64,000 nucleotides of DNA from contig NZ_CH672395.1 of assembly GCF_000152985.1 (NCBI RefSeq), forward strand, positions 1,216,567 to 1,280,566. Reading direction: 5' to 3'. Shown in pieces: positions 27,381 through 63,983 of this stretch. The notes beneath the pieces were generated by a model. The model did not search any database. It had not been told where the DNA came from and saw only the letters and a program-made list of their open reading frames with translations. The stretch's first letter is position 1, and every line of letters starts with the position of its first letter. The position numbers were made by a program, and so were the translations under genes. The stretch is from Leeuwenhoekiella blandensis MED217. Its GTDB lineage: Bacteria > Bacteroidota > Bacteroidia > Flavobacteriales > Flavobacteriaceae.

Positions 27381-27788
27381 GCCTTAAAGCCACCCAACGC
27401 CCAGGCATCCCCCAGGCAAAGCCTAGGATGGTGTATGAAGAGTGTATGAAAACAGCTTTTTTTAGGCTGGAATTTCACATTTTGTTAACACACAGTAAAG
27501 TGCTGAATTTTTGAGGGGTAAAGGAGTCTTTCTTTCAAACGGGTTCTTCTCTTTGGAAAATGCTCAAGAAAAGTTTAATATCTTGAATGTAAATTATAAC
27601 AGAGTATAGCAGAGTCATTTAATGATAGATATACGACGTATATTTATGTTTCGGAGGATAGTCTGAACACTCTTACTAAGACTACCAATTAAAAATTGCA
27701 GGAGGTCAAAATATCTATTCCTTTGGCGAGTATTTATCAGATAATAATAATGAGAAGACAATTGAAAATGTACTTGAACATTAAAATC
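27381..27788. other. Intergenic region before the caspase-fold gene
   Basis: A 408-bp region without a convincing gene. It contains a CCCAGGC-AAA-GCCTAGG imperfect hairpin near 27412-27428, without a T-run, and a perfect palindrome at 27629-27643. Short in-frame codons from 27696 extend the caspase-fold reading frame upstream but have no signal-peptide character. Confidence 0.5.
27629..27643. promoter_or_regulatory. Perfect palindrome upstream of the caspase-fold gene
   Basis: ATATACG-A-CGTATAT is a perfect 7+1+7 palindrome about 145 bp before the start codon, suited to a dimeric regulator. Its function is inferred. Confidence 0.35.
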
Positions 27789-42548: not shown

Positions 42549-42553
42549 ATTTT

Positions 42554-47188: not shown

Positions 47189-48114
47189 AATTTAGGTTTT
47201 AGAATTAATCTGTAATTGTTCAGTACGGTTACTTTTACCCTTCGGTTAGAGCGCCTGAATACTTGGGTAAGTCCGCCAACTTGTGGAACACTCGGGATAT
47301 TTATATCACCAATAACATCATCGAGAACCTCTCTGGTTGCTTCTTCCCTAAAGTTGTTCTCAACATAGATGCCCTCGCTACCGTCTTGCAAATCGAAGGC
47401 TTTGAGTTTGGTGGGATGGTGCTTTATGTTTTCAATTTCAATCAAGGCACGATTGGGCTGAAAACTGATAAATCCGAAAATCGGTGTGTTCTTTGGCATC
47501 AGTTTGCCATTTATTGTAGCAGCTTTGGTAAGGCGCATCCGTAATCGGGTATTTGTCTGAACAATTTGGTCGCCATCCACGACTACATAAATTGTTTCGT
47601 CTGTATTGCCGATAATTGAAACTTCATTGGGTTTGGGCGCAGCGGCAAAGAATAGTTGATGTTCCAAGCCCAGTTCTTTAGCTTCAATTTTTTGTTCTCT
47701 TTTAACTTCAGCTGAATCCACCTTTGGTACTGTTTGTTGAACAGCTCGCCTTTGCCCTAAATTTTGATACCGCTTTTCGGAATACTTAATTTTGCCAGCA
47801 TCATAGATACTATCAACAATGCGTTCTTTTTCACGTTCCGGTAAATCTGGGTCGTAAAAGCCCAGGGAATCAATCAACTTTTCATCATAGATGCTGGGTG
47901 CATTAGTTTCGCGCACTTCCTTCAGGTCGTTAATCGCATCGAGCTTGGACTCGTATTCTTTTTGGTCTTCTTCCAAATCAGGCACTAAAGTCTGTTGTAG
48001 GCTTTCATTCTCGCTATCATCATCGCCCATTACCATTATGGAATAGGAAATGAGGAATATGAAAATCACGGCCAATACCGCTACAAATACTATTTTATTC
48101 TTTTCTACTTTCAT
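47185..48114 (-). CDS. traM: Conjugative transposon protein TraM (VirB10-like)
   Basis: This 309-residue protein has one N-terminal membrane helix (IVFVAVLAVIFIFLISYSIM), a charged linker, and a C-terminal beta-rich VirB10-like domain (NTRLRMRLTKAATINGKLMPKNTPIFG). It links inner and outer membrane parts of the secretion channel. It overlaps traN and follows traK. Confidence 0.9.
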   Translation of the reverse strand: MKVEKNKIVFVAVLAVIFIFLISYSIMVMGDDDSENESLQQTLVPDLEEDQKEYESKLDAINDLKEVRETNAPSIYDEKLIDSLGFYDPDLPEREKERIVDSIYDAGKIKYSEKRYQNLGQRRAVQQTVPKVDSAEVKREQKIEAKELGLEHQLFFAAAPKPNEVSIIGNTDETIYVVVDGDQIVQTNTRLRMRLTKAATINGKLMPKNTPIFGFISFQPNRALIEIENIKHHPTKLKAFDLQDGSEGIYVENNFREEATREVLDDVIGDINIPSVPQVGGLTQVFRRSNRRVKVTVLNNYRLILKPKL

Positions 48115-48144
48115 AATCGTGGTTTTTAAATGCCGATTATCGGC

Positions 48145-48759
48145 TCAACTTTCATCATTCAGTTTTTTTAAGGTGTTCTCGAAGTAATTCGTAATCAAAA
48201 GTCCGTGAGGATTATTGGGAAAGTTTCGGTCAACCATAATCAGGTTTCCGGTGGAAACCAATTCATAAGTGTCAATTATTGAACCTCTATTAATTTCAAA
48301 AATGGTGGTGGTTGTAAAACTATACGAGCCATTATTTTCGTTTATCCTTGAGTCAATACTCAATACTTTTTGAACTAATGAATACTGAAGCAATCGGTTA
48401 TAAACGCCATCAGCTTTCTTCTGACGGTAAAGATTGTCCACAGAGCTATTGCCTAACCAAAGTGCTTTTTCCAAGTTTCGCTCATAGTTACTGGCATCGA
48501 TGTTATAGAAGTAGTTGTGGAACAGTTCTAAATGTGCCAGAGCTTCGACCCGAAAATTTTCCTTTTGAGTCACGAGCTTCAGCGGAATAATACTACCATC
48601 GGTATTAATGGCAAAAGCACTATTGAGTGCTTTTTGATTGGTGTTGAACACCATCCAAACTGAAAAAGTGCTGGACAGCAACGCACAGGCAACAACTGCC
48701 AAAACGATAAATCGATTCAGTTTTAGGACATTATAAATATTCTTATATGGTGTTTTCAT
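48145..48759 (-). CDS. traK: Conjugative transposon protein TraK (VirB8-like)
   Basis: This 204-residue protein has a short cytoplasmic tail (KTPYKNIYNVLKLNRF), one membrane helix (IVLAVVACALLSSTFSVWMVF) and a periplasmic VirB8-like domain (LAHLELFHNYFYNIDASNYERNLEKALWLG). It lies between traJ and traM as in CTnDOT-type elements. Confidence 0.92.
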   Translation of the reverse strand: MKTPYKNIYNVLKLNRFIVLAVVACALLSSTFSVWMVFNTNQKALNSAFAINTDGSIIPLKLVTQKENFRVEALAHLELFHNYFYNIDASNYERNLEKALWLGNSSVDNLYRQKKADGVYNRLLQYSLVQKVLSIDSRINENNGSYSFTTTTIFEINRGSIIDTYELVSTGNLIMVDRNFPNNPHGLLITNYFENTLKKLNDES

Positions 48760-48770
48760 ATTAATCTGAT

Positions 48771-49613
48771 TTAAGCAGTAAATAATCTGAGTGTAAAGGA
48801 CGTAGCACGTTTATACAGTTTGAATTTCAGGAAAACAATAAAGCCTACTGAACCCAACTGAACTACAGGTGCAAAAAAGCCTTGACCTGTATCGGTTCCG
48901 AATAAATTGACCCAGAAATTGGTATTGATTTCGGTATAGAGCGCATTTACAAAAACGTTGACCAAAAAGAAGGCAGGTACCAGCATATATACAGCTGCAT
49001 ACAATTTGAAAAATGTGTAAGCAAGTGAACGGAACTTTTCAAATACCGCTAAGCTTATGACCAAAGGGAAAAAGGTTTGCATAATTCCGAGTAGAAAAAA
49101 GCGTTCTGCCAAAAACAGCGGATAGATAAACAAATCCAATATCCATAGGAAAAGACTAATGATGAACGCAAGTATCTTGAAACCGTAAAGTGGTGTGACC
49201 AAGGCTTCATATAACAGCGTCATAGCCGATTGTGCAACTTCAATAATACTAACGTCCTCTTCGATGGGAATATCTTGCATCTGCAATGGCAATAAGGCTG
49301 GTGCTGTTCCTCGATATTGCCCTTCGATAGCTACTAATATGCCATCAAAAAATCCTAAGACCTGAGTTGAGAATATGACCAAGATGACAATGGCAAAATT
49401 CTTGACCAGTTCGCCTGGACTCAATCCCCAAGTATAACCATCCTTATCTGCAATGCCTTCATTATATTTTTTAAGAATGTTGACCAAAAAAAACAGGACA
49501 GCGAGCGTTTTTATTCCGGCAATAGTGTATTGCGAAAAGTCGCTAGCCTGTATGGTCTGGAAAACGGCATCTATATATTCCAGTCCGATCCCTAAGAGAA
49601 TTGTGGCAGTCAT
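48771..49613 (-). CDS. traJ: Conjugative transposon protein TraJ (VirB6-like)
   Basis: This is a polytopic inner-membrane protein of 280 residues from the ATG at 49613 (MTATILLGIGLEYIDAVFQ). About six helices are visible, including FAIVILVIFSTQVLGFF and ILAFIISLFLWILDLFIYPLFL. The open frame extends upstream to 49676 into traI; the start at 49613 places the gene directly against the traI stop and is preferred. Confidence 0.9.
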   Translation of the reverse strand: MTATILLGIGLEYIDAVFQTIQASDFSQYTIAGIKTLAVLFFLVNILKKYNEGIADKDGYTWGLSPGELVKNFAIVILVIFSTQVLGFFDGILVAIEGQYRGTAPALLPLQMQDIPIEEDVSIIEVAQSAMTLLYEALVTPLYGFKILAFIISLFLWILDLFIYPLFLAERFFLLGIMQTFFPLVISLAVFEKFRSLAYTFFKLYAAVYMLVPAFFLVNVFVNALYTEINTNFWVNLFGTDTGQGFFAPVVQLGSVGFIVFLKFKLYKRATSFTLRLFTA

Positions 49614-49614
49614 T

Positions 49615-50196
49615 TTAGTATTCGGTTTCGCGATTATTGACTTTATCCTGCATTTTTCTGAAGGAAATAATGTCACGATAGCGTTTCGTTTTTGTAGTGA
49701 TGTTAGAAACCATTTGTTTTGATTCCATCTCTTTTGCTTTTAGAATTTCAGCACGTTCGGCATCACTCATTTTTAGATAGTCGCTGGATAGAACTTCATC
49801 TATGAAATCTACCGTGTCCAATGAGTTTTGAACTATTGCATCAAACGATTGCACAACCCTTGAAACTTCATCGGGTTTTATATAGGGCGAATTCAGAATG
49901 TCCTGTACATCGTTTTGCATTACGCTGATAAGGTGTTGATTGTTTTGTCCAATTTCCTCAACTGCTCTCAGTTGTTCGACAACGCTTGACACTTTTTCTA
50001 TAGCCTCTTTTGCATCTTTCAGAAATTTTACAGACTTTATCATTTGAGCTGTCTGTTTCCCAGATTCCAAAAGCTGTTTTACCAAACTGATAAAATTGGT
50101 ATTGTCATAAGTGGGCATTCCTTGTGCAGTAGCTTTACCCGACATAAATAAGGTCAAGGCTACTGTCATTACTAAAATTTTGATTTTTGTCTTCAT
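49615..50196 (-). CDS. traI: Conjugative transposon protein TraI (VirB5-like, DUF4141)
   Basis: This 193-residue protein has a signal peptide (IKILVMTVALTLFMSGKATAQ) and a mostly helical mature part (LVKQLLESGKQTAQMIKSVKFLKDA), like VirB5-type minor pilins. Its stop lies next to the traJ start, and 4 bp separate it from traG. Confidence 0.88.
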   Translation of the reverse strand: MKTKIKILVMTVALTLFMSGKATAQGMPTYDNTNFISLVKQLLESGKQTAQMIKSVKFLKDAKEAIEKVSSVVEQLRAVEEIGQNNQHLISVMQNDVQDILNSPYIKPDEVSRVVQSFDAIVQNSLDTVDFIDEVLSSDYLKMSDAERAEILKAKEMESKQMVSNITTKTKRYRDIISFRKMQDKVNNRETEY

Positions 50197-50200
50197 AATA

Positions 50201-52603
50201 TTATGTTTTTGATGTGAATTGAATTATTGCTTTTTGCATATCGTTATGCTCGTTGTAGAGCTTCATTATTTCTTCGTTTTCCTGTCCATCGGTCAGGTAA
50301 GCTGCATATACTTCCTTCGGGACTTCCAACCGAAAAATGTTACTTTCCCTACCTATTTTGATGAACATTTCGGTGTATTTGCGTGGTCCGGTAAGGTTGT
50401 TCTTGATGGATTTTAACTGGTTCAGGTCGTGGCTGGACAGATTGAGTCTTTTGACCAATCCGTCATAGCCTTTTTCATTATTCAGACTGTAGATGACCTG
50501 TGTGTTTTCAAGGATGCTTGCGGAAGTCGAGTTGTTCGGAAGCTGATTGATAGATTGCAGAATAATCCCAATTGCACCGTTCTGTTTACGGATAGCTTGA
50601 TAATAGAACTCGACACTTTCCAATACATTTTCAAACTTTAGTTGTTTGGCAAACTCATCAAAAAGGATGATACCTTTTTCGGCTCTGTTTTTCCAAATAG
50701 TTCTTTGTATGGCGGACTTAATGAGCTTCAACATTACAGATAAGATCTCTTTGTTGTCCTTTACTTCATCCAGTTCAAAAACAATTAATCGTTTGTCCTC
50801 AATCTTATAGGTCTGGTCTTCGCTAACTTCAAAGAGGAAGCTATATAGACCATCGCCGACGTATTCGGACATTACGTGCAAGAAGCTCGTGACATTGAAG
50901 TAATCGGGATGGATTTTTAAAGTGCTCAGAAGGTCTTCCTGATTCCTTTCTATAAAGCTGTAAAAACCATCTAAAGAGTGATTTTCTGAAGTGCTATCGT
51001 AATAGTAGCGCAATATCTTTTTAACCGAAACCGATTGTGCTTTTGTGACTTTTAAATCTGAAGTAAACAATTCAAATAAGAAAACTGACAGGTCTTCCAA
51101 CCGTTCTGGTGTCAAGTCATTTTGGTTACTTATATAAAATGGATTGATACCCAAATTCTTACCGCTTTCATAGCGAAGTACTGTGTATTTTTCTGGGTAG
51201 AGTTTGGCAAACTTGGTGTAAGATCCACCAAGGTCGATAATGACCAATCGCACACCACTTTCAAAATACTGGCGTAAAATGTTATTGGCTAAAAAGGATT
51301 TGCCTTCGCCCGTTGGTGCGAAAATGGCGAAGTTCCGAGCTTTGATGCGTTTCTTGCGCTCGTCCCAAACATCCTTTAGAACGGGAATATTATGCTCTCG
51401 GTCATTGAAGATGATTCCGGTATTGTCGGATTTGTAATTGGTGTTATTGATGAACAGGCAAAGCGCGTGCTTTAAGTCTGTGACATATAAATCGTTGTTT
51501 GAAAAGTTGGAAGAGAAACAACAGTAACTGTTCAGAATGTAATTTTTACGTTCTTCACCTCTTGGATAGTATGGGATGATATCGAGTTCCTTAAACTCAG
51601 TCTTGATTTTTGAGGTTATTTTATCAAGCTCTTTGGCATCTTTAGACCAGTACACGATGTTCAGATGCCCACGAATGATTCTGGCATTATCATCGGCATT
51701 GATTTGGTCGAGAATGTGCTGGATTTTGCCAAGCACTACTTTATTCTGCGAACCAAAATTGGAACTTTTGTTAAGTTCCTCGATTTTCTTATCCAGTAAC
51801 TTGCGCCACTTCTGTTTATCATCTAAATAGATGATTTGGTTGACGATATGGTTTTCATTAAGCGTAAGCCCTAATCCATCAATAAACCCTTGATGAAATA
51901 CAAAATCGTCAGAAGTGAATTTCTCATTGGTTTTGCTACTCTGTACACTTTCGCCAAAGCACAGTTCGCTATTGATGGCAAGGGCATCAAAATGGTTTTC
52001 GCCAATATTGACGCTTTTTTTATCTAATATGATGTCCGTATCAAAACCCTCATTGAAACCGTTGAAATAACCGTTTGTGAGGTGCTGTATCTCATCCGCT
52101 TTAAGCGGAAGGAAAGCCATCTTTCGGCTATTATTAATGAAGGAAACAGAATCGCTTACAGAGTTTACAAAACTCTTAATATTATCGTCCAGTTCCTGTA
52201 CAATTCCCTTTGAAATTTTTCTAAAGGGATTGACATATTTTGAGTTGTTAAGTGCCTTGTTCTTGGTTAAGATGAAGAACAAATAACACTTGTGTTCAAT
52301 ATGCCCACGACCCTTAAAATGCTTGTGAGTAGCTTTTTCGAGAAAAGATGTATTCGGAAGTTGTTCTGAAGTATAGGATTTCTTCAGGTATATATCCTGT
52401 TTGTGAACCACGGTTCCCACAGGCAATGATTTTAGAGCTTGAAACCAAGCACCGTGCATATCTTCAAAGTCCTTTTCGGAAAGCGAATAAATTTCAGGTA
52501 GATTCCCTGTATAGCACAAGACCACATTGCCATTATTGGCAAAGACGATATTGTCTTGGATATCTGTAATCGGTTGATATGCCGAAAGGTTAATCTTATT
52601 CAT
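50201..52603 (-). CDS. traG: Conjugation ATPase TraG (VirB4-like)
   Basis: This 800-residue ATPase powers the mating pore. It has an N-terminal VirB4-type domain, a Walker A loop (APTGEGKS, about residue 430), a Walker B region with acidic residues (KGIILFDEFAKQLKF) and the later QSINQLPNNS segment. It overlaps traF by 8 bp. It belongs to the TraG family of Bacteroidota conjugative transposons. Confidence 0.95.
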   Translation of the reverse strand: MNKINLSAYQPITDIQDNIVFANNGNVVLCYTGNLPEIYSLSEKDFEDMHGAWFQALKSLPVGTVVHKQDIYLKKSYTSEQLPNTSFLEKATHKHFKGRGHIEHKCYLFFILTKNKALNNSKYVNPFRKISKGIVQELDDNIKSFVNSVSDSVSFINNSRKMAFLPLKADEIQHLTNGYFNGFNEGFDTDIILDKKSVNIGENHFDALAINSELCFGESVQSSKTNEKFTSDDFVFHQGFIDGLGLTLNENHIVNQIIYLDDKQKWRKLLDKKIEELNKSSNFGSQNKVVLGKIQHILDQINADDNARIIRGHLNIVYWSKDAKELDKITSKIKTEFKELDIIPYYPRGEERKNYILNSYCCFSSNFSNNDLYVTDLKHALCLFINNTNYKSDNTGIIFNDREHNIPVLKDVWDERKKRIKARNFAIFAPTGEGKSFLANNILRQYFESGVRLVIIDLGGSYTKFAKLYPEKYTVLRYESGKNLGINPFYISNQNDLTPERLEDLSVFLFELFTSDLKVTKAQSVSVKKILRYYYDSTSENHSLDGFYSFIERNQEDLLSTLKIHPDYFNVTSFLHVMSEYVGDGLYSFLFEVSEDQTYKIEDKRLIVFELDEVKDNKEILSVMLKLIKSAIQRTIWKNRAEKGIILFDEFAKQLKFENVLESVEFYYQAIRKQNGAIGIILQSINQLPNNSTSASILENTQVIYSLNNEKGYDGLVKRLNLSSHDLNQLKSIKNNLTGPRKYTEMFIKIGRESNIFRLEVPKEVYAAYLTDGQENEEIMKLYNEHNDMQKAIIQFTSKT

Positions 52604-52874
52604 AGTTAAAACCTGAATTTCTTTTGTTACTTATAATTTTTGGAAAAGCATTGGCTGTTTGAAAAATCTGTGGGTTGTGGGTAATTCTTGTCAATGCCAC
52701 ATAGAGCGCAGCGTTAAAAACGAGAATACCTATAATCATCCCGAAGCTGAAAGAGAAAATTACTATGAGCAATGAGGCTAATATGGAAACCATCATTAAG
52801 GCAAACAGGGAAATGGGCAAGCCGAAAATGACTGCCCGTTTCCTAATGTTTTTATAGACCTCGAACCGCTTCAT
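52596..52874 (-). CDS. traF: Conjugative transposon protein TraF (DUF4133)
   Basis: This 92-residue inner-membrane protein has two helices (GLPISLFALMMVSILASLLIV and FGMIIGILVFNAALYVALT), matching DUF4133/TraF, a VirB3-like component. Its start overlaps the traE stop by 1 bp and its end overlaps traG. Confidence 0.9.
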   Translation of the reverse strand: MKRFEVYKNIRKRAVIFGLPISLFALMMVSILASLLIVIFSFSFGMIIGILVFNAALYVALTRITHNPQIFQTANAFPKIISNKRNSGFNYE

Positions 52875-53158
52875 TATACAACGATTCCGATTAAGTATGT
52901 GAAGATGCCGACTACAGCGCCTGCAATCAAAACGAAAACGAGAACGCGGGTAATCCCCTTTTTGAGATCAGCATTTTCGCCAAAGAAATGTCCTGCGTTA
53001 AACAGGAACCCGATGAGGAAAATAACCCCTAATATGATTGGAAAAATAGTTCGGATGGTGTTAGAAACATCATCGACCGAATCTTCAATGCCACCAATTT
53101 GAGCAAATAGCGAAGTGGATAAGAGCGAAAGAGATGCTAAATAGAGTGATTTTTTCAT
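52874..53158 (-). CDS. traE: Conjugative transposon protein TraE (DUF4134, pilin-like)
   Basis: This 94-residue protein has a signal peptide (LYLASLSLLSTSLFAQ) and two membrane helices, as in DUF4134/TraE, the VirB2-like pilin candidate. It is the first recognised tra gene of the operon. TraA-TraD homologues are not seen upstream. Confidence 0.9.
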   Translation of the reverse strand: MKKSLYLASLSLLSTSLFAQIGGIEDSVDDVSNTIRTIFPIILGVIFLIGFLFNAGHFFGENADLKKGITRVLVFVLIAGAVVGIFTYLIGIVV

Positions 53159-53268: not shown

Positions 53269-53347
53269 TTTGAATTCCGTTGCTATTATTTGGCATCAAA
53301 TGGTATGGATTTTTGAAGTGGAACTGTTGAAAACATAAAAATTGAAA

Positions 53348-53983
53348 ATGAAAAAGTGGCTCAAAAACGTCAGTTTTATGATTTTGCTTCTCAAAAGTTG
53401 CATCCTTTTGTGTCAGAATTTGGACACAAAAAAGATAGTCGTAATTGACCCTGGCCACGGTGGAAAAGATTCGGGTGCAATCGGTATAAATGGCATCCAA
53501 GAAAAGGATGTTGCGTTGAATATCGCAAATGCCATTTTGAAGCTAAATGATGAGTTGGATAAAACTTTGGACATTTATTTGACAAGGCACACCGATACCC
53601 TCATTTCTATATCGGATAGAACGAAGTTGGCCAAAGTCCTTAAAGCTGATTTGTTCGTGTCCTTACATTGCAATCATTCGGATAATGTACATTCAAGAAG
53701 GGTTGAAGTTTACGTGGCTAATCAAAATTCTGAGTTTTCGGAAGAAGCCATTTGGTTAGCTTTTCAACTACAGGCAGACCTTAAAAAAAAACTTGGTTTT
53801 GAAAGTAGGGGTGTGAAGTTTGCAAATTTTCAGGTGTTGCGTGAAACCATTGCTTATTGCTCGTCATTATTATTAGAATTGGGGTTTTTGAGTAATTGGG
53901 ATGAGAATATGTACTTGTCAAATTCGAATAGAATTAAAATCATAGCTTATTTAATATATGAATCAATAAAATATAAAAGATGA
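53348..53983 (+). CDS. N-acetylmuramoyl-L-alanine amidase
   Basis: This 211-residue Amidase_3-type zinc hydrolase cleaves the amide between MurNAc and the peptide stem. It has an N-terminal hydrophobic export segment (VSFMILLLKSCILLCQ) and the zinc motif VIDPGHGGKDSGAIG, with later LHCNHSD and LLLELGFLSN blocks. The ATG at 53348 is preferred to the TTG 6 bp upstream. Divergent from the tra operon, it probably opens the wall for the mating pore. Confidence 0.9.
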   Translation: MKKWLKNVSFMILLLKSCILLCQNLDTKKIVVIDPGHGGKDSGAIGINGIQEKDVALNIANAILKLNDELDKTLDIYLTRHTDTLISISDRTKLAKVLKADLFVSLHCNHSDNVHSRRVEVYVANQNSEFSEEAIWLAFQLQADLKKKLGFESRGVKFANFQVLRETIAYCSSLLLELGFLSNWDENMYLSNSNRIKIIAYLIYESIKYKR

Positions 53984-54148: not shown

Positions 54149-55471
54149 TTGAATGATAACAACAATATAAATTTTGATTTTGTAAAAGAAATTAAAGAAC
54201 CTGGTGTTTACCAACTACTTTTTCCAAAGAAGGAAGTCGGGTTGGCAGTTATGGTTTTATTTGAGAAAATTGAAAACAAAACGCTACCAGATGGAAAATT
54301 CATCGAAAAGGATCTTCACGATGCGTTTGCGCAAATAAGCAAACCAAACGAGAGATACCCAAAAGAAATTTACAGTGAACATATTAAAGATCTTCAGGAA
54401 TACTTTTTAGACTACAACCAAGAAACTCAAAAATATTACTTTAAGGATTATGCACATAGGTTCTATGCCTATGCAAAGGAAACTTTAGAGGGTAACTTTA
54501 ATCCAACTCATATTGAAAAGATTTGTAGTCTTCTTACAGCTTCATTAAAACAAAGAGAAACTTTAGAGGATTTAAAGTTTTGGCTCAAATCAGAATTCAA
54601 AAAATATGAACCTGATCTTCGGGAACAGGTAGACTTTTTGGACAGACAGATTATTGAATCTGTAAATAAACTTAAAAACAATACCACAAATTCCGATAAG
54701 AATTTTATTGAACTCTTGCGAGAAGTAGAAAGCAATCTAGATAAAGCACAAGATCAGAGTAAAGAATTAGCAGCCGCGTATTCTGAAACTAAAGTGATAC
54801 GCTCAATCCTAGAAAAACGAGAAGATACAGATTCAGAAGCAGATGATTTAATAGCAGATGTTCACTTCTTTATCAAATATCTCAACGAGAGACTGGATTC
54901 TATAGATGGAAAATTAGATAGGATTCAACCAAAGATTAGACATTTATTTTCTATCCTAAATAGACCTCAGTTCAACAGCAAGATTGAAAAGTTTCTACAT
55001 TTTCTATTAGATAAGAGTACCGTGACCGGTAAAAAGGATACGGTTTTACCAAAGTCGGTACTGAATCCAGTTTTGCATATAGACACCCCTAATTTTACCA
55101 TTGTTGAGCGAGAAAGAGAATTATTTCCCTCTAAGCCAAAAAAAAGAGTTTCTTACAAATCAAATGAAGTTAAGATTGAGGAAAACACAAAAAGTATATT
55201 AAAAGTACTCACTCAACAGGATTTGATTAGAAAATGGGAACAACACATTATTGCCGAAATAGAATTAAGAGGTGGCATCGATTTATCCGCAACGTTCTTT
55301 GAAATTATGGAAGATACTAATGATGGACAGATAGCTGTAAGTGCAATATACAGTTCAATACAACAAGCACGTAAATCAAAAAGATTTGATTTTAAAATGA
55401 ATAAAACTAAACAGACCAACAGTAAAATAGAGCATATTAGTTTATGGAAGATGAACATACAAAAGATATAA
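54149..55471 (+). CDS. jetA: Wadjet JetA-like protein (DUF3375 type, MukF-like kleisin)
   Basis: This 440-residue protein has the size and layout of JetA: an N-terminal winged-helix-like part (NFDFVKEIKEPGVYQLLFPK), coiled-coil middle segments (LLREVESNLDKAQDQSKELAAAYS, then LDSIDGKLDRIQPKIRHLFS), and a C-terminal winged helix. JetA is the kleisin of the Wadjet SMC complex, which detects and cleaves circular plasmid DNA. The start is a TTG at 54149, with an in-frame stop 6 bp upstream. It overlaps jetB by 28 bp. Assignment rests mainly on gene order. Confidence 0.78.
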   Translation: MNDNNNINFDFVKEIKEPGVYQLLFPKKEVGLAVMVLFEKIENKTLPDGKFIEKDLHDAFAQISKPNERYPKEIYSEHIKDLQEYFLDYNQETQKYYFKDYAHRFYAYAKETLEGNFNPTHIEKICSLLTASLKQRETLEDLKFWLKSEFKKYEPDLREQVDFLDRQIIESVNKLKNNTTNSDKNFIELLREVESNLDKAQDQSKELAAAYSETKVIRSILEKREDTDSEADDLIADVHFFIKYLNERLDSIDGKLDRIQPKIRHLFSILNRPQFNSKIEKFLHFLLDKSTVTGKKDTVLPKSVLNPVLHIDTPNFTIVERERELFPSKPKKRVSYKSNEVKIEENTKSILKVLTQQDLIRKWEQHIIAEIELRGGIDLSATFFEIMEDTNDGQIAVSAIYSSIQQARKSKRFDFKMNKTKQTNSKIEHISLWKMNIQKI

Positions 55472-56091
55472 GGGTACAGTTTTTAGACCATCCTGATACA
55501 GAAGAACTATTTGCTTCCTTAGACTATATGTTGAAGGATGGTGTACATTTTCAAAGGGAAGGAAGTCAGGCAAGATATTACAATTACATCTACTCTAATG
55601 TAGATAGCTTAAAAGCGTACTACCAGTTTTTATTTAATGTTGAATTGACATTTGGCGGTACCGAAACAAGAGGTTATTACTACTTAGATTTTATTGGTAA
55701 CACAAGGGGTCAAATAGATGCTGGGCATAGATATCATATGAAGAGCGAACACGTTATAATTGGCTTTATCATTTACAAGATTTTTTTCATTGATAATCAA
55801 ATTGATGTGGCTTCGGTAGAAGACTTGCAAAAAAAGATTAGGACCGATTACGAAGATTTAAAACCTGGTATTTACAGATTGATTGCAAAATCAAGGAATA
55901 CCAATCCCGGGAATTTAAATGACGATGCCATAGATTCAACTGTAGAATCTGCACTTAGAGAATTCAAAAAAATTGGTTGGGTAACATTAAAGGATGATGA
56001 GTTCGACCTGTTACCAGCTTTCGATAGGTTGATTGCCATACACGAAGACCACATAAATAATATAGATGAAACTCTAAATGAATTGAAATGA
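55444..56091 (+). CDS. jetB: Wadjet JetB-like protein (MukE/MksE type)
   Basis: This 215-residue protein has the tandem winged-helix layout of MukE/MksE/DUF4194 proteins, which bind the kleisin and regulate the SMC ATPase. A recognisable section is TRGYYYLDFIGNTRGQI ... EHVIIGFIIYKIFFID, followed by DDEFDLLPAFDRLIAIHE. It overlaps jetA by 28 bp and jetC by 4 bp (ATGA), so all three are translationally coupled. Confidence 0.8.
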   Translation: MEDEHTKDIRVQFLDHPDTEELFASLDYMLKDGVHFQREGSQARYYNYIYSNVDSLKAYYQFLFNVELTFGGTETRGYYYLDFIGNTRGQIDAGHRYHMKSEHVIIGFIIYKIFFIDNQIDVASVEDLQKKIRTDYEDLKPGIYRLIAKSRNTNPGNLNDDAIDSTVESALREFKKIGWVTLKDDEFDLLPAFDRLIAIHEDHINNIDETLNELK

Positions 56092-59000
56092 AGAGATACC
56101 CTAGAATAAAAAGACTATCTACTTTGGGCATCGTGCATCATCAATCATTTGATTATGATTTTAATCCATTCAGAACAGATTTTGTTGGCGAAGGTGGTTC
56201 TGGTAAGAGTATGATTGCAGATATTTTGCAACTCATTTTTGTAGGTTCTGCTGCCTTTCATTCACCTACAGATAGTAGTGAGCCAAGGAAACCCAAAACT
56301 ATGGTGTTAAGGACATCTGGTAAAGGTACAGATATGGGTTACGCTTTTATCAATATAAAACTCGAAAAAGATGCCTTTGTAGTTATAGGTATATATCTTG
56401 AAAGTACCGGAAGCTCACGTTCTTTTATTATTCAGCAAGGAGAAAATTTTGAACCAGAAGATGAATTGCTTCCATTTAGTAAAGCCCTTAGTTTTTCAGA
56501 TTTTCTAAAGGACAACAGTATTTTACCAATAGAAGATTTAAAAAATCACATATTCGACACCAAAGGATATGTATGCGAATCTTGGACACGACCAGACAAG
56601 TTTCACAAACTGTTGTTTGAAAACTTTATTATACCGGTTGACTTGTCCATCAACCAAGAATCACTAAAGAGCTATGCTAAAATCATTCAGGCATTCTCTA
56701 GAGAATCTTTAGACATCAAGAAAAGCGAAAAAATTCAGGAATTTCTATTCGGAAGTGACAAAGAAAAAGAGCTGAAACTAGAATTTGATAAAGCTGTTGA
56801 AGAATTGAGTGGCGATATCCGTCAGTTTGAATCTAACAGGGATGAGATAGATATGTTAACCCACAAGCAGACAGAGCTGCAAGATCTTCTCAATCTGAAA
56901 AAGAAAAGGGACAAAGCAAAGAGCGAATTTTTAAACACAAAATTTCATTATTTAAATCAGCAGATAAATCTATCTAATGGTAAAATGACTGAAAAGTTAG
57001 ATGCCTTTTTTAATAATCGAAACACATTAAATGGACTTAAGAATTTTGCAGAAACTAAAGTTGAAGAGCTGAAATTAAATATACCTGCTCTAGACGAAGA
57101 CTTTGAAAAGGCTTCTGCGGAAAGGATGATATGGCAAGGAAAAAGCAAGAATTTGAAAAAGTATTTTTCTTGGATGCAATATTTTGAAAAGACAGGGGAA
57201 GAACTTTCAGAACATTATCACAGTTATCATAAAAACAAGCAGGACATTGAGCGAATAGCACAATTAAAGTCCTTACTAAAGTATAATAATATCTACGGCT
57301 TCTTCGGGAACAATGATAAGCTTGACAAGAGCACTTTATTGAATATCGCCGAAACGATAAAGGGATTTGAGTCTTCACTAGAAGAAAAAAGGAAACTCAA
57401 AGTGCTAAACAATTTGGACGATACCGCTTCACTTGCGCATTGGGCATTAAATCTCAAACGGAAGTTGAACTTAAAAGAGGAAAGTGTAGTTCACAAATAT
57501 CAAAACGATAATATTACCACCGAAGAACCTACAAACGGGATAAAGGAAAGATATATTCCAGAGCCAAAACTGCTCATTAAAAATCTGCAAATCACAAAGG
57601 ATCAAGATGATGGTTTTTGGATAGACTTGGGTGGGGTTCGCGAGTATATTCCGTATGTAAAAAAACCAATTTTTGATACGGGTAACTCAGATAAAATCAA
57701 AGATTATTTTTCAAAACAAAAAACAACTTTAGAAAATGATATTAAAGATTTAGAAAAGGAATTGAAGAGTTGGACAATTTTAAAAGAGCTTTTAAATAAC
57801 TTGGAAAACGCATCAACATATCTTTTGTCTTGGGAATCAAAAGATGTTAACTCTAAGTTTGACAAGCACGAACTGTTTGGGGAAACCCCAGATACCATAA
57901 AGCAATATTTGAAATTACTGGATGAAGATGAACTGATAGATGACGGTTTAAGAATGGCAAATAAGGTCTATAAGAAGATAGATGAAAAGCGTTCTGAAAA
58001 TATTTCGTTAATTAAGGGGTTAGAGACAAACCTAAAAACAATTTCAATTCCTGAAATCGAAGAAGATGTTAACCAACTAACCGTAAAATATAACTATGAA
58101 GTAAAAGATACGAATGGTTTTGTCAGATTGAAAAAAACGTTAGTTCAAAAAAAAGATTTCTATGACACTTTTGTTTCAAAGCTTCAAGAAGAGATAAAAA
58201 ATGAAATAGCTGTTGAAGATTTAAAATTTGAAGACAAAGCAATAGATGTTTTTAAGACAGATTTGCAAAAATTAATTGCTGACCATCCAAAAATCACTTC
58301 AGAAACTTATCAGGATGAGATTGAACTTTCTTCAGATTTATTAGAAGAAAAGGATACCCTAAATGCAGAATGTCAAAAACACTACAATACTAAATACGTT
58401 TTAGTGATAAAGGAATTTTTGAAAGAAAAAGCCAATCGCTATTTAGAAACAGATGATTTTAGACAAATATGCTCTGAAATTCTACCACCAGAGATTTTTT
58501 CAGAGAAGGATTTAGAAGATGATGAAATCATTCCACGTATAAAAAAGTTACTCAATGATATCAACATCAAGAATAAGCAGCTCAACATAAGAAAACTTCA
58601 AAAACTAACGAGTATAGTGGATAAGGTTCGTAATGAAGTAAGTGAACAGATATATTACTCAAGAAAAATTAGGGATTTTATAGATGCAGATGATAAGACG
58701 ATAACTGGCGGTCACAGAGCTAAATTGTCTATTAATTTTGAAAATAGCTATCCTAAAGAGTGGATGGAAGATTTTATTGATAAAATACGGGAAGACATTC
58801 GAGTATCAAGTGAGAATAATCTATTCAATGATTTACAGGGCGTTTCTAATGAATTAGAAAAATATACATCGCTAGAAGAAAAAATGCAGGAAGCATTTTA
58901 TAGATGTGGCGGTTCTAGAAATTTAAAGCCTAAAATTATAGAATTACTCAACCCTAAATCATATTATGGGTTAAACTTTACTATCAAATCCTTGCACGGA

Positions 59001-59339
59001 AAAACCAATCCAGGAAGCACGAGTCAGACCTATGCAGCAATTGCACTTTTATGTATTGCTAGGCTATCACTAATTAATAGAGTTGCCAAGGACAAAGTAA
59101 GGGATGGGATAAGGTTTATGCCTATTGACGAGGCTGCTGGTCTAGGAAGTAATTTCGATATGCTTTACGATATCGCCAAAGCTAATGATTACCAGATTAT
59201 TTCGTTGTCAATTCAGCCTTATAAAGTTGATATGCTAAACCAGTATATCTACTTACTTCATAATAATCTAGAAGAATCTGATAAAGTAAATTATGAACCA
59301 GTTCCAATATTTGGGGATTTTGATGATAACTTAAATTAA
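56088..59339 (+). CDS. jetC: Wadjet JetC-like SMC ATPase (MukB/MksB type)
   Basis: This 1083-residue SMC-like ATPase has Walker A GEGGSGKS at residues 34-41 and a C-terminal ABC part with a signature-like NPGSTSQTYAAIALL and Walker B-like IRFMPIDEAAGLGSNF. Long coiled coils lie in between (for example TGEELSEHYHSYHKNKQDIERI), interrupted by a hinge near the middle (KYNYEVKDTNGFVRLKK). JetC is the motor that extrudes DNA loops in the Wadjet complex. The length agrees with the family. It starts within the jetB stop codon. Confidence 0.87.
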   Translation: MKRYPRIKRLSTLGIVHHQSFDYDFNPFRTDFVGEGGSGKSMIADILQLIFVGSAAFHSPTDSSEPRKPKTMVLRTSGKGTDMGYAFINIKLEKDAFVVIGIYLESTGSSRSFIIQQGENFEPEDELLPFSKALSFSDFLKDNSILPIEDLKNHIFDTKGYVCESWTRPDKFHKLLFENFIIPVDLSINQESLKSYAKIIQAFSRESLDIKKSEKIQEFLFGSDKEKELKLEFDKAVEELSGDIRQFESNRDEIDMLTHKQTELQDLLNLKKKRDKAKSEFLNTKFHYLNQQINLSNGKMTEKLDAFFNNRNTLNGLKNFAETKVEELKLNIPALDEDFEKASAERMIWQGKSKNLKKYFSWMQYFEKTGEELSEHYHSYHKNKQDIERIAQLKSLLKYNNIYGFFGNNDKLDKSTLLNIAETIKGFESSLEEKRKLKVLNNLDDTASLAHWALNLKRKLNLKEESVVHKYQNDNITTEEPTNGIKERYIPEPKLLIKNLQITKDQDDGFWIDLGGVREYIPYVKKPIFDTGNSDKIKDYFSKQKTTLENDIKDLEKELKSWTILKELLNNLENASTYLLSWESKDVNSKFDKHELFGETPDTIKQYLKLLDEDELIDDGLRMANKVYKKIDEKRSENISLIKGLETNLKTISIPEIEEDVNQLTVKYNYEVKDTNGFVRLKKTLVQKKDFYDTFVSKLQEEIKNEIAVEDLKFEDKAIDVFKTDLQKLIADHPKITSETYQDEIELSSDLLEEKDTLNAECQKHYNTKYVLVIKEFLKEKANRYLETDDFRQICSEILPPEIFSEKDLEDDEIIPRIKKLLNDINIKNKQLNIRKLQKLTSIVDKVRNEVSEQIYYSRKIRDFIDADDKTITGGHRAKLSINFENSYPKEWMEDFIDKIREDIRVSSENNLFNDLQGVSNELEKYTSLEEKMQEAFYRCGGSRNLKPKIIELLNPKSYYGLNFTIKSLHGKTNPGSTSQTYAAIALLCIARLSLINRVAKDKVRDGIRFMPIDEAAGLGSNFDMLYDIAKANDYQIISLSIQPYKVDMLNQYIYLLHNNLEESDKVNYEPVPIFGDFDDNLN

Positions 59340-59362
59340 CTGGAAAACTGCTCATTGCCATA

Positions 59363-60316
59363 ATGAAGAAAAACGTAGAGTGGAAATATTTAATTGGTCT
59401 TAACCAGTTGTACGAGAAGGGTAGAACTAACCTTAGAATCGAGAATAATAGTTTTATCAAACAAGTATTGATGAGGCAGAAAAAGCTAATAAAACCAAAA
59501 ATGGGCAATCCTAAAATATTGGAAGCCAAATATGGTTATAAGGACTATTACAAAGAGGAATTTTTGAGCTACTTTGAGTACTATTCCAAGTTTTTTGAAA
59601 AAGCGGGATTAGAAAGTAACGCCCACAAAACCTACAATGAAGACGATTTAAAAAGTTTGGCTTTCATTTATTATCAAAAAGACCAGCTGAAGAAGAATCT
59701 AACAACCGAATATACATTTTCAACAAGAGTCTTCAAGGGTAAAGGTGCTAAATATTTAACTAATAAACCCAGTTTGCGCAATGCCGTATTACAGCTTTTA
59801 GAGATTGATGAATTTCCAGAGAAAGACCCGAAGAATGCTCAATGGCGATTTGTAGTCGATTGTGAAGATCCTAAGTTGGTTGTTATTTGCGAAAACATAG
59901 CCTGCCTTAAAGTGCCTTATGAATACAAACAAAATAACATTGAGTTATGGTACGTAGGCGGTAATAATACAAATCCTTTAAAGGATATTTCTGCGAAGAA
60001 AATAGAATTACCTCTCTTTTATTTTTGCGATTGGGACCATCACGGACTATCTATTTATTCTAGAATAAAAGGCATCTTTCAGGAAAAAGGAAAAGAAATA
60101 AGACTAGTTGAACCTACCACATTAGATAATGCACTACCTGTAGATTCACCACACCACAATAGTAAGTGGCGCAAAAAGGAATTTTCAGGATTAAAAAAAG
60201 AGAACTTTTCTGTGCAACAACAAGACATAATTAACAACTTGATTCAAGATAATATATGGGTAGAAGAAGAATCAATGGATTTGTTAGAACTTCTGGGAAT
60301 GAAAAGTTTAAATTAA
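59363..60316 (+). CDS. jetD: Wadjet JetD-like TOPRIM nuclease
   Basis: This 317-residue protein is the nuclease subunit of the Wadjet set. Its C-terminal TOPRIM domain shows E177-N178 (VVICENIAC) and the D-x-D motif D223-W-D225 followed by HHGLSIYSRI, as in JetD/DUF2220 proteins. The N-terminal ~160 residues would be the DUF3322-like arm and look short compared with most JetD proteins. The gap to jetC is 23 bp, and a Shedu-type gene starts 10 bp downstream. It would cut circular DNA after the SMC complex stalls. Confidence 0.83.
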   Translation: MKKNVEWKYLIGLNQLYEKGRTNLRIENNSFIKQVLMRQKKLIKPKMGNPKILEAKYGYKDYYKEEFLSYFEYYSKFFEKAGLESNAHKTYNEDDLKSLAFIYYQKDQLKKNLTTEYTFSTRVFKGKGAKYLTNKPSLRNAVLQLLEIDEFPEKDPKNAQWRFVVDCEDPKLVVICENIACLKVPYEYKQNNIELWYVGGNNTNPLKDISAKKIELPLFYFCDWDHHGLSIYSRIKGIFQEKGKEIRLVEPTTLDNALPVDSPHHNSKWRKKEFSGLKKENFSVQQQDIINNLIQDNIWVEEESMDLLELLGMKSLN

Positions 60317-60326
60317 AAATAAAGAT

Positions 60327-61511
60327 TTGGTAGAGATAGAAAAAATAGATTCAAAACTTGTATTAAAATACTATTCCGACTATGAGCCTACGGAATGGCT
60401 AGATAAGAAATTAGAAACGCTAATTCCTTTTAAAATCAAGCATATTTTTAATGTAGGAAGTAAGTCTCTACTTAAAAAGATTGAAAATGAATTTCAAGAA
60501 TCTGAGTACTTCTTTGAGATTGGCGAATTAATGGATGGCTACTATGGTGTTTACAGAGAAGTTTTGGGTGTGTCTAATACATTTTTCTTTCATAAATCTT
60601 TGGATATTAAACTCGACTATTTTTTCGTAAAATCTAAATCCTCACTTCTGTTGCAAATAGATAAACATTTGCAAGAAGACATTTATATTGGTGGTCCAAA
60701 AGAAACTATATTACCAATCGAAGAATTTGAAAAACTCATTAAAATTTTCCCCACTACTCACGAAATTACCCTATATCGTCAGGCAAAAGTCACATCAGTT
60801 TTAAAGAATTATTTTGACTATATTACAGATAAGGAAGAATCTTATCAAAACTATCTAAACAATAAAACACCCAACTATGGTAGCAACTTAAGAAAAACGT
60901 TTCGGGAAGCCGATATTGTCAAATATCAAACGCTTTTAGAGAAACTAAAGGAAATGCTTTCCAATGAAGTGAAGTACACAGAACATCAATGGCAAGCTGA
61001 AATTATTGAAATAATATTATTACTATTTCCTAAATACATCGCGGTATTTGACGAAGTAAAGTTTAAGGACATCTACAATAACAAAACCAGAAGACTAGAT
61101 TACGGATTAATCGATTTTATGGGGAATCTAGACATTGTTGAAATAAAAATTCCTTTTGATAAGAACATCGTATCGGCTAACCCTTACAGAGATAATCACA
61201 TTCCAAATAAGGATTTATCTGGAACAATAATGCAAATAGAGAAATACATATTTTATTTAAACAAAACTGGGGCAAACGGGGAAAAAAGATTGACTGAAAA
61301 ATACAAAGACCAACTACCAGAAAAATTGAAAATTAAGATTACAAACCCGAATGGAATGATTATTATGGGAAGAGATAATAACCTAACAGAAAGTCAACTT
61401 TCAGATTTTGAGATAATTAAAAGGAAGTACAAGAACATAATAGATATTTTTACATACGACGATTTAATGCGTAGAATGGAAATAATGTTGGCGCAGCTAG
61501 AACGGATATAA
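60327..61511 (+). CDS. sduA: Shedu-type nuclease SduA (DUF4263)
   Basis: This 394-residue protein has an N-terminal region without a clear family and a C-terminal DUF4263 PD-(D/E)XK nuclease core, with D258 (RRLDYGLIDF) and E272-I-K274 (DIVEIKIP) as the metal-binding and catalytic residues. That is the single-gene Shedu defence protein. It starts at a TTG at 60327 only 10 bp after jetD, so it is likely cotranscribed with Wadjet, a combination discussed in the findings. It ends 20 bp before the convergent DUF3800 gene. Confidence 0.85.
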   Translation: MVEIEKIDSKLVLKYYSDYEPTEWLDKKLETLIPFKIKHIFNVGSKSLLKKIENEFQESEYFFEIGELMDGYYGVYREVLGVSNTFFFHKSLDIKLDYFFVKSKSSLLLQIDKHLQEDIYIGGPKETILPIEEFEKLIKIFPTTHEITLYRQAKVTSVLKNYFDYITDKEESYQNYLNNKTPNYGSNLRKTFREADIVKYQTLLEKLKEMLSNEVKYTEHQWQAEIIEIILLLFPKYIAVFDEVKFKDIYNNKTRRLDYGLIDFMGNLDIVEIKIPFDKNIVSANPYRDNHIPNKDLSGTIMQIEKYIFYLNKTGANGEKRLTEKYKDQLPEKLKIKITNPNGMIIMGRDNNLTESQLSDFEIIKRKYKNIIDIFTYDDLMRRMEIMLAQLERI

Positions 61512-61531: not shown

Positions 61532-62656
61532 CTATTCTTGCTCAATGAGAGTATTAAGGGTGTGCATTCTGCTTTGTTCAGTTGTACCAGTTATTTGATG
61601 AAAAAAGCCTGGATTGTGGTTATCAGATTTAGAAATAATCTTCACGTAAAGCTGAAGATTGCTTTTTTGTAAATCATTTAATTTTTCAAACTCTGAGATT
61701 ATTAGTTTTTCAGGATGATTATTTATGAAACTATGATATTTAGAGGTTAAGCCTACTATGATATCGGAAAATTGAATCATAATTTCTGATTTTGAATCTT
61801 TGAATACATAGTTGTTCAAAGTCCTTTTTCCATCAATAAGATTAAATCGACCTATAATTTTTTGGATGGCATCTTCATTGTCAAACGTATGTGTAGAGTT
61901 TTTGAACATATAAATTTGTTTGATGTAAAACTGGTAAAACTCTTCTATTAACATATTATCTTTTTCTCCGCCTAGAAAAGGCATTTTTCGCTCCATACCT
62001 GAAAAGTCAAGTATTTCTTTGAGAATTTTTAGACTTTTCTGATTTTTTACATTTTCATTGTCATAGCTGGTTATAGCTATAATTTTTATTATAAATTCAG
62101 GAATATCTTCCTCACTTATGTTTGGGTATTTAAAATCAAAAAATAGAGCTCTAGTTTCATCTAAGTGTTCTCTAAGAACTTGGTGCATAACATCTTTTAG
62201 CTCTGCAATAAAATGAGGTCCACGGTCTAACAATTCTTTACGATTCATAAGTGCAGAATCCACAATATCAACTATAGAATAATACAAAAGATTAATACTA
62301 GAAAGATGAACTAATATATCTTCATTATCAATAAATTGTAGATAGGTATTTATTTTTTGAGAGTTTAAGCAACTTATAAAATCGCCACTAGCTAAATGTT
62401 TGAACTTGATTTCCTTTACATTTTTTTGCAATTGTAAAGAATCCTTAAGCTCTTTGAAGTTGAATACATTCCCAGCATCAACTATTCCACCCAAAACAAA
62501 ACTACCAGTTATTGAGGAGTTGAAATCTGTTTCTTTGGTGTATAGTTTTCTCGGGTTATTGGATTCATCATAGAAAAAATGATATTTTCCATCAAAGTTG
62601 ATATGTGGAGCGAGTGATTTCTGACCATCTCTTATTTTGTTTATGGGAAAATCCAT
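61532..62656 (-). CDS. DUF3800 domain protein
   Basis: This 374-residue protein fits DUF3800, a family with an RNase H-like fold. Acidic residues typical of the family are D30-E31 (YHFFYDESNN), an LFFDFKYPN segment in the middle and the C-terminal IMIQFSDIIVGL block. No membrane segments or signal. It is the second gene of a two-gene minus-strand operon, 10 bp after the 438-residue gene. DUF3800 proteins are frequent in defence and mobile regions, but their biochemistry is largely unknown. Confidence 0.75.
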   Translation of the reverse strand: MDFPINKIRDGQKSLAPHINFDGKYHFFYDESNNPRKLYTKETDFNSSITGSFVLGGIVDAGNVFNFKELKDSLQLQKNVKEIKFKHLASGDFISCLNSQKINTYLQFIDNEDILVHLSSINLLYYSIVDIVDSALMNRKELLDRGPHFIAELKDVMHQVLREHLDETRALFFDFKYPNISEEDIPEFIIKIIAITSYDNENVKNQKSLKILKEILDFSGMERKMPFLGGEKDNMLIEEFYQFYIKQIYMFKNSTHTFDNEDAIQKIIGRFNLIDGKRTLNNYVFKDSKSEIMIQFSDIIVGLTSKYHSFINNHPEKLIISEFEKLNDLQKSNLQLYVKIISKSDNHNPGFFHQITGTTEQSRMHTLNTLIEQE

Positions 62657-62666
62657 TATGAATTTA

Positions 62667-63983
62667 TTATGTGGTAATTGTGTTGTAATTCATTGAAGCA
62701 TAAGGATGGAAATCTGGCGTATAACTTATTAATTCTCCATCTATGAATTTGTGATGTCCTATATTTGGAAAGTATTCCATATCAATAGGGTGTTTTGCTT
62801 TCGGATTATGAAATAAGTTTAAACCTTCTCGCCAAGTCTCTTTTGTGTCCTCTGAGACCTTATATTTAAATGAAATTGGGTCAAAACTTTGTGGGTCTGG
62901 ATTTACACAATCTCCTATTCGAATAACTATCTGTCCCTCTTCTGCAAAGCCAGCTTGAATTCCCATACGTGTGAATTTGGCTAAGGTACCTGTAGCTGAA
63001 AATAGTATCGCACTTACATATTCAGTATCAGGTTGGTCAAAAAAACCTGTTGGGATTATTTTTCCTGAAGGCTTGGTGTAACTATTTGCTTTTACAGTCT
63101 TGATGATTTCTTTACCCTTCTCATCTTTCTCAGAAATTTGCTTATGACCATATAGATACTCTGTAAGAGCAACAAAAGACCATATCATAGAGGCGTCGCT
63201 ATGAAAATCTGCGATTGCAAAAACAAGAGGCCTGTTCTTTACGTGGTCAAGTTTCCAATATTCCTTTCTCAATTTAGAGTAAAGAGCACTACCATAACGC
63301 AGAGGAGTTTCATTTTTTAGCTTTTCTTCAATGTCCTGTAGAGTAGTTGAACGAGGTTGTATATGGACTAGTTTAGGAGGATCATTTTTACGACCTAAAA
63401 TAACTGCTTCTACAGCAATAGTTAAGTCATCTTTTTTAATCAAAAAGTCAGGTCTATTAAATTCTCTAAGCATTTCAAATTCTAATTCTATGAAGGAAGC
63501 AAAAAGATATAGCTCCCAAAGACGTGCATCAAATCCATTTATGGATTGAAATTGTTCTACAAAATTACCATCTATATCATCTAAATGATTAGATATTTCT
63601 ATAATAGCTTGTTTTGAAGCTTTTGAACCTTTACTGTTTTTGAGGTTCTTGAAATAAGGATGAAGTTTTTCTGGTGATTGATTTACCTCGAATAGCTTAA
63701 GGCCTTTTGGAGGGCCACCTTGTTCAACAATAGTCAAATTTTGAGAACTATGCCACTTCATTGAATTAGTTAGAGCGGTTATGCATTTTTCTTCTGTAGT
63801 GTAATCTGTTTTGATTTCAAATGCGCGAAACTGCCTATTTTCATCCCTTGCCATTAGTATGTAATTATAGTCTTTGTCTGTATAGTCAAGAATAACAACC
63901 CCTAAAATAGTGTTAGTGTCATTAGTATAATAGTGTAGTTCTTTGGCAAGAAAATTTATAAACGGATGCCTTGTAAAAAGCAT
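62667..63983 (-). CDS. Uncharacterised protein with possible nuclease core
   Basis: This 438-residue soluble protein is not from a family I can name with confidence. Its N-terminus (LGVVILDYTDKDYNYILMARD) and the middle look like a defence or mobile-element protein. Around residues 165-194 the run ASFIELEFEMLREFNRPDF and then AVEAVILGRK resemble a PD-(D/E)XK core with D179 and E192, though the usual Lys is Val194. The C-terminal half (SAILFSATGTLAKFTRMGIQAGF) has no recognised motif. The ATG at 63983 is only 17 bp from the window edge; the gene appears complete. It leads the operon with DUF3800. Confidence 0.6.
   Translation of the reverse strand: MLFTRHPFINFLAKELHYYTNDTNTILGVVILDYTDKDYNYILMARDENRQFRAFEIKTDYTTEEKCITALTNSMKWHSSQNLTIVEQGGPPKGLKLFEVNQSPEKLHPYFKNLKNSKGSKASKQAIIEISNHLDDIDGNFVEQFQSINGFDARLWELYLFASFIELEFEMLREFNRPDFLIKKDDLTIAVEAVILGRKNDPPKLVHIQPRSTTLQDIEEKLKNETPLRYGSALYSKLRKEYWKLDHVKNRPLVFAIADFHSDASMIWSFVALTEYLYGHKQISEKDEKGKEIIKTVKANSYTKPSGKIIPTGFFDQPDTEYVSAILFSATGTLAKFTRMGIQAGFAEEGQIVIRIGDCVNPDPQSFDPISFKYKVSEDTKETWREGLNLFHNPKAKHPIDMEYFPNIGHHKFIDGELISYTPDFHPYASMNYNTITT

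What the first reader, a model, noticed from the sequence alone, without database searches (positions are those of the whole stretch)
54149..61511. Wadjet operon extended by a Shedu nuclease
jetA, jetB, jetC, jetD and sduA run on one strand with overlaps or gaps of 28, 4, 23 and 10 bp, so the Shedu-type nuclease looks like a fifth subunit or a backup nuclease of the Wadjet set. Wadjet and Shedu are known as separate systems. Joint operon control could combine plasmid cleavage with phage defence, or SduA could act as an alternative effector.
Basis: partly seen in the sequence, partly recalled or inferred. Interest (0 to 1): 0.72.

Follow-up and report, generated by a model that had tools for sequence, protein, structure and literature searches.

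The report
Shedu gene riding behind Wadjet operon
A mobile element in a Flavobacteriaceae genome carries a phage-defence nuclease gene (Shedu) packed directly behind a plasmid-defence operon (Wadjet); relatives show that the nuclease is an exchangeable add-on rather than a fifth part of the Wadjet machine, although the two could still act one after the other on invading DNA.

Summary
jetA-jetB-jetC-jetD-sduA lie on one strand with overlaps of 28 and 4 bp and gaps of 23 and 10 bp, with no terminator-like hairpin or promoter-sized space between jetD and sduA. JetABCD is a divergent Wadjet. SduA is a full-length relative of the DNA-end-sensing E. coli Shedu (8PS4, E=1e-78). The "fifth subunit" reading is not supported. 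The operon is cargo in a CTnDOT/RteC-type conjugative element. Seven genomes share this Wadjet (JetD 81-88% identical), but only four (three distinct sequences) have sduA behind it. In the other three a different two-gene module takes its place, and DNA homology stops at the end of jetD. None of 13 more distant Flavobacteriaceae Wadjets examined has SduA. The same Shedu type stands alone on plasmids and prophages, or sits tightly in Hachiman, BREX, Gabija and type I restriction operons. Best reading: two independent defence modules, probably co-transcribed, in an ICE cargo slot. A functional relay (Wadjet linearises circles, SduA attacks the ends) is plausible but untested. Interest is moderate; it is a new member of a known kind.

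The parts
54149..55471 (+). jetA, MukF/MksF-like kleisin (440 aa, TTG start)
   Evidence: ORF; model pLDDT 73 matches MukF 9gm7/7nz2/3euh
55444..56091 (+). jetB, MksE-like KITE subunit (215 aa)
   Evidence: Pfam PF21980 4e-22
56088..59339 (+). jetC, SMC ATPase (1083 aa)
   Evidence: Walker A and B residues invariant in 15 homologues; no library family
59363..60316 (+). jetD, Toprim nuclease (317 aa)
   Evidence: PADLOC JetD 1.6e-4; model matches 8b7f and 7til; E177, D223, D225 invariant
60317..60326 (+). 10-bp jetD-sduA junction; border at which the downstream module is exchanged in relatives
   Evidence: Sequence; no terminator; homology between relatives ends at the end of jetD
60327..61511 (+). 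sduA, Shedu nuclease of E. coli SduA type (394 aa, TTG start)
   Evidence: PADLOC 7e-149; PF14082 4.5e-30; 8ps4 E 9.6e-79; D258, D263, E272, K274 invariant in 11 relatives
61532..62656 (-). DUF3800 / PDC-S51 candidate defence gene, neighbouring cargo
   Evidence: PADLOC 8e-118
62667..63983 (-). PD-T7-1-like defence gene, neighbouring cargo
   Evidence: PADLOC 2e-165
53342..53983 (+). N-acetylmuramoyl-L-alanine amidase, constant left border of the ICE cargo slot
   Evidence: PF01520 9e-44; present at this place in the relatives
46334..53158 (-). conjugative transfer (tra) genes of the ICE, including the TraG-type ATPase 50201-52603
   Evidence: ORFs; P-loop_TraG 1.4e-60

Best explanation
The locus is two separable defence modules packed head to tail in the cargo slot of an integrative conjugative element: a complete, divergent Wadjet (JetABCD) and a single-gene Shedu nuclease of the E. 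coli SduA type. With 10 bp between them they are probably read from one transcript (inferred). Each most likely works by itself. JetABC extrudes circular DNA and JetD cuts it (known for Wadjet, inferred here). SduA binds DNA ends and nicks near them (known for EcSduA, inferred here from full-length homology). Their coupling is shared expression and shared horizontal transfer; SduA is an exchangeable passenger and not a subunit of the Wadjet complex.
For: Six other loci share the same ICE flanks and jetABCD; sduA follows in L011 (= L012) and L013, but a 585-aa gene plus a 1020-aa LmuB-like ATPase gene stands there in L014, L015 and L016. L016 and L013 are 89% identical in DNA up to 18 bp before the jetD stop, then unrelated, then alike again at the DnaC-like gene; L011 and L013 are alike to the end of sduA. 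L016 groups with L013 in the JetABC tree (93/99). None of 13 more distant Wadjets has SduA; other partners stand beside them, such as Drt3a/b, PDC-M62A/B, Gabija, a Ppl-like gene, or none. The same SduA type sits in Hachiman (L017), BREX (L018, L040, L111), Gabija (L126) and type I restriction (L074) operons or alone on plasmids and prophages. Its closest relative outside this ICE lineage among the loci examined (70%, L072) has no Wadjet beside it. Catalytic residues of both JetD and SduA are intact.
Against: All three distinct SduA copies of this ICE lineage keep the same order and a short gap, and SduA is under strong purifying selection, which would also fit a functional link. No expression, interaction or restriction data exist. 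Only one ICE lineage carries the pair, so independence rests mainly on L014-L016 and on other contexts of SduA.
Confidence: 0.78

Rival explanations
1. Second-strike relay: Wadjet linearises a circular plasmid, and the end-sensing SduA of the same operon then attacks the fresh ends and makes restriction irreversible. The proteins need not touch; their substrates follow one another.
For: SduA aligns over almost its full length, N-terminal clamp included, with EcSduA, which binds DNA ends and nicks nearby (PMC12904381). Wadjet cuts circular but not linear DNA (PMC10586767). Known operon partners of this SduA type are DNA-targeting systems: Wadjet, Gabija, Hachiman, BREX, type I restriction.
Against: sduA is absent behind the same Wadjet in L014-L016. 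EcSduA-type genes mostly stand alone on plasmids and prophages. Defence genes cluster in any case.
Confidence: 0.13
2. SduA is a true fifth subunit or an alternative effector of this Wadjet subtype.
For: Tight co-directional spacing, repeated in three distinct copies of one ICE lineage.
Against: Replaced by other genes in sister elements; absent from the 13 more distant relatives examined; JetD catalytic residues intact; SduA occurs in unrelated operons and alone.
Confidence: 0.03
3. Plain neighbours with separate expression: sduA has its own promoter inside jetD, and the spacing is a by-product of compact ICE cargo.
For: The slot is a hotspot with varied cargo. A lone Bacteroidetes -7 motif lies in the 3' part of jetD at 60020.
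Against: Gaps of 10-27 bp in all three distinct copies, no -33 partner for that motif, no terminator. The alternative module instead has a 121-148 bp gap that holds promoter-like motifs.
Confidence: 0.1

Closest known systems
Wadjet (JetABCD / MksBEFG / EptABCD)
   Same: Gene order kleisin-KITE-SMC-Toprim nuclease, overlapping genes, JetD fold and catalytic residues
   Different: Too divergent for PADLOC models of JetA, JetB and JetC; subtype I-III not assigned; followed by an exchangeable defence gene
Shedu, E. coli SduA type (PDB 8ps4, 8ps5)
   Same: Almost full-length homology including the N-terminal clamp region, ExK nuclease motif
   Different: EcSduA is a stand-alone gene; here it is behind jetD in one operon
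Auxiliary or backup nucleases in BREX operons, Shedu included (PMC12839542)
   Same: A Shedu nuclease inside the operon of another multi-gene system (L018, L040, L111)
   Different: Here the host operon is Wadjet; I found no report of that pair in the library
Defence cargo slots of mobile elements (ICEs, islands, Tn7-like elements)
   Same: Fixed element borders with exchangeable modules; empty and differently filled variants in relatives
   Different: Here a CTnDOT/RteC-type ICE of Flavobacteriaceae, slot between an amidase gene and a DnaC-like gene

Membership tests
Wadjet | Four co-directional genes jetA-jetB-jetC-jetD | tested here: met
   same order in window, sister elements and 13 further relatives
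Wadjet | JetB of MksE/KITE family | tested here: met
   PF21980 4e-22, above cut-off
Wadjet | JetA kleisin and JetC SMC ATPase | tested here: met
   JetA model matches MukF; JetC Walker A and B residues invariant
Wadjet | JetD with Toprim nuclease fold and catalytic acidic residues | tested here: met
   Best PDB matches 8b7f and 7til; E177, D223, D225 invariant
Wadjet | Assignment to type I, II or III | tested here: inconclusive
   Only weak PADLOC JetD1 hit; no JetA/B/C model hit
Wadjet | Restricts circular plasmids | not testable with these tools
   Needs an experiment
Shedu (SduA) | SduA_C / DUF4263 nuclease domain with PD-(D/E)xK residues | tested here: met
   PF14082 4.5e-30; D258, D263, E272, K274 invariant
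Shedu (SduA) | N-terminal clamp region as in EcSduA | tested here: met
   phmmer to 8ps4 over residues 7-387; N-terminal construct 8ps6 also matched, 5e-17
Shedu (SduA) | Cuts near DNA ends and blocks phages | not testable with these tools
   Needs an experiment
Five-gene Wadjet-SduA system | SduA constantly present with this Wadjet | tested here: not met
   Absent behind jetD in L014-L016 and in 13 further relatives
Five-gene Wadjet-SduA system | Physical or functional dependence of SduA and JetABCD | not testable with these tools
   Needs pull-down and restriction assays
CTnDOT-type ICE cargo | RteC, TraG-type tra genes and coupling protein, constant borders with variable content | tested here: met
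   RteC 5e-68, TraG 1.4e-60, coupling protein 4.8e-16; variable slot content; integrase and att sites not mapped

The most novel reading that the evidence does not exclude
EcSduA-type Shedu is a general finishing nuclease that is recruited again and again to the operons of systems that cut or open DNA (Wadjet, Gabija, Hachiman, BREX, type I restriction). It acts on the ends or nicks they create, so that here Wadjet turns a circle into a linear molecule and SduA destroys it.
Probability: 0.13. Interest if true: 0.7.

Novelty: new member of a known kind. Interest (0 to 1): 0.38.

Why it matters
It shows near base-exact module exchange behind a Wadjet operon in an ICE, and that one Shedu type is packed into the operons of at least five different DNA-targeting systems. 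That makes a simple idea testable: whether an end-sensing nuclease adds to systems that create DNA ends. It also warns against reading tight spacing in defence islands as subunit membership.

Tried and rejected
Sigma-70 promoter scan: as many sites as in shuffles, so uninformative. Profile searches of JetD, JetC and JetA, and a single-sequence search of JetC, found no Jet protein among PDB sequences; only the fold comparisons did. JetD had no plasmid match at E 1e-5 and one IMG/VR locus (L115) without SduA. Considered and rejected: SduA as a replacement for a dead JetD (JetD intact); SduA as a decayed remnant (dN/dS 0.03-0.06); counting L011 and L012 as two observations (identical over 18.9 kb). 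No paper on a Wadjet-Shedu operon was found. The two key Shedu papers (Gu 2025, Loeff 2025) are not held in full text and were used only through reviews. A notebook remark that some slot operons look like type I restriction was never tested and is not used as evidence here.

Full report
Observation. JetB is a clear MksE. JetD is weak by sequence, but its predicted structure has the two solved Wadjet nucleases as its best matches, and E177 and D223/D225 are invariant in 15 homologues. The JetA model matches MukF, and JetC carries invariant Walker A and B residues. So this is a complete but divergent Wadjet that the PADLOC models for JetA, JetB and JetC miss. SduA is a strong Shedu and aligns over almost its full length with E. 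coli SduA, PDB 8ps4. Its core residues, including E272 and K274, are invariant in 11 relatives.

Surroundings. The operon lies in an integrative conjugative element of CTnDOT type. TraG-type genes and an amidase stand to the left. A DnaC-like ATPase, a helix-turn-helix protein and RteC stand to the right, just beyond the window. A second defence system, Gabija, sits at 40983-44434 between the coupling protein and the tra genes, and two further candidate defence genes follow sduA on the other strand. I fetched 20 relatives of the element through the DnaC-like gene. Their slot between amidase and DnaC holds an ArsR-like plus a MerT-like gene (named by eye, not scanned), other unannotated operons, or nothing (about 100 bp in L079, L084 and L087). 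None shows a Wadjet; L088 is cut by a contig end. The slot is therefore a cargo site.

Test of the subunit idea. A scan of one genome per species found six more loci with JetD 83-88% identical (81-88% over aligned codons), all in the same ICE context. jetABCD is constant. sduA follows it in L011 (identical to L012) and L013, but in L014, L015 and L016 a 585-aa gene and a 1020-aa LmuB-like ATPase gene stand there instead. Between L013 and L016 DNA identity is 89% until 18 bp before the jetD stop, then absent, then returns at the DnaC gene. Between L011 and L013 homology ends at the end of sduA. The JetABC tree joins L016 to L013 (support 93/99, just short of the usual 95 for the first value), so sduA was probably replaced, or else gained separately, inside this small group. 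In 397 Flavobacteriaceae genomes the JetD profile hit 18, of which one is a weak partial match. Thirteen further loci were read. Beside jetABCD stand Drt3a/b, PDC-M62A/B, Gabija, a Ppl-like gene, unknown or NERD-domain genes, or nothing, and never SduA. SduA is thus not a constant part of this Wadjet.

Where this Shedu type lives otherwise. The SduA profile found six full-length members in the same 397 genomes. Two are in this ICE lineage. One is in a Hachiman operon (HamA-HamB-SduA with a 4-bp overlap; L017). One is 11 bp behind a type I restriction gene (L074). One follows a coupling protein in another element (L072, 70% identical to the window protein). One lies 143 bp behind a partial type I methyltransferase match, with a type I restriction gene a few kb away (L073). 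Elsewhere it sits in BREX operons (L018, L040, L111), 5 bp behind gajB of Gabija (L126), and alone on plasmids, in a P2-type prophage region and in other prophages. The review PMC12839542 notes a Shedu-BREX link and proposes backup effectors there. I found no paper on a Wadjet-Shedu operon in the library, which lacks most subscription papers.

Mechanism. Shown here: gene order, intact catalytic motifs, exchange at the jetD/sduA border, purifying selection on SduA (dN/dS 0.03-0.06). Inferred: one transcript, from 10-27 bp gaps, no terminator-like hairpin and no complete promoter motif at the junction, whereas the alternative module has a 121-148 bp leader with promoter-like motifs. From the literature: Wadjet cuts circular, not linear, DNA (PMC10586767), and EcSduA binds DNA ends and nicks nearby (PMC12904381). 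The simplest reading is two autonomous systems with complementary targets, circles and ends, sharing expression and transfer. A relay in which SduA attacks the ends made by Wadjet fits the biochemistry but is untested, and the dispensability of sduA in sister elements speaks against a strict need.

Verdict. Observation confirmed; subunit or alternative-effector reading not supported; co-expression likely; functional synergy open. Both modules are known kinds, and the arrangement is a new member of a known kind (mobile defence cargo packed into shared operons). The recurrence of one Shedu type in five kinds of operon is the most useful lead. The counts rest on samples of genomes, not a full survey, and the Wadjet-SduA pair itself counts as a single origin.

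Noticed in passing
window 40983-44434 (-): A complete Gabija (GajA 42554-44434, GajB 40983-42548) sits between the ICE coupling protein and the tra genes, so the ICE carries at least Gabija, Wadjet and Shedu.
   Followed up: partly
L048:191-12795 and L050:64-13958: Two Flavobacteriaceae genomes of different genera have Gabija directly upstream of Wadjet (gajB-jetA 4-bp overlap and 12-bp gap), followed by PDC-M62A/B or by a 1344-aa protein with no family match. A recurrent Gabija-Wadjet operon may deserve its own look.
   Followed up: partly
L014:10078-14900, L015:10079-14901, L016:8559-13365: The module that replaces sduA: a 585-aa protein without a family match and a 1020-aa LmuB-like ATPase, possibly an uncharacterised Lamassu-like pair.
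   Followed up: partly
L017:5360-9998, L126:8155-13116, L074:8576-13035: The same Shedu type is packed into Hachiman, Gabija and type I restriction operons.
   Followed up: partly
L011 and L012 (18936 bases each): Identical 18.9-kb ICE segments in an uncultured Croceitalea assembly and in Eudoraea chungangensis: very recent transfer, or contamination of one assembly.
   Followed up: no
window 54149 and 60327: jetA and sduA both start with TTG, conserved in relatives; the weak starts may keep protein levels low.
   Followed up: no
window 27696-32078 (+): A 1460-aa protein with a C-terminal caspase-like match, near the left side of the ICE region.
   Followed up: no
window 32673-64000 and beyond: An ICE excises as a circle, a topology that Wadjet can target in principle; how an ICE-borne Wadjet spares its own circle is unexplained. 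ICE ends and integrase were not mapped.
   Followed up: no
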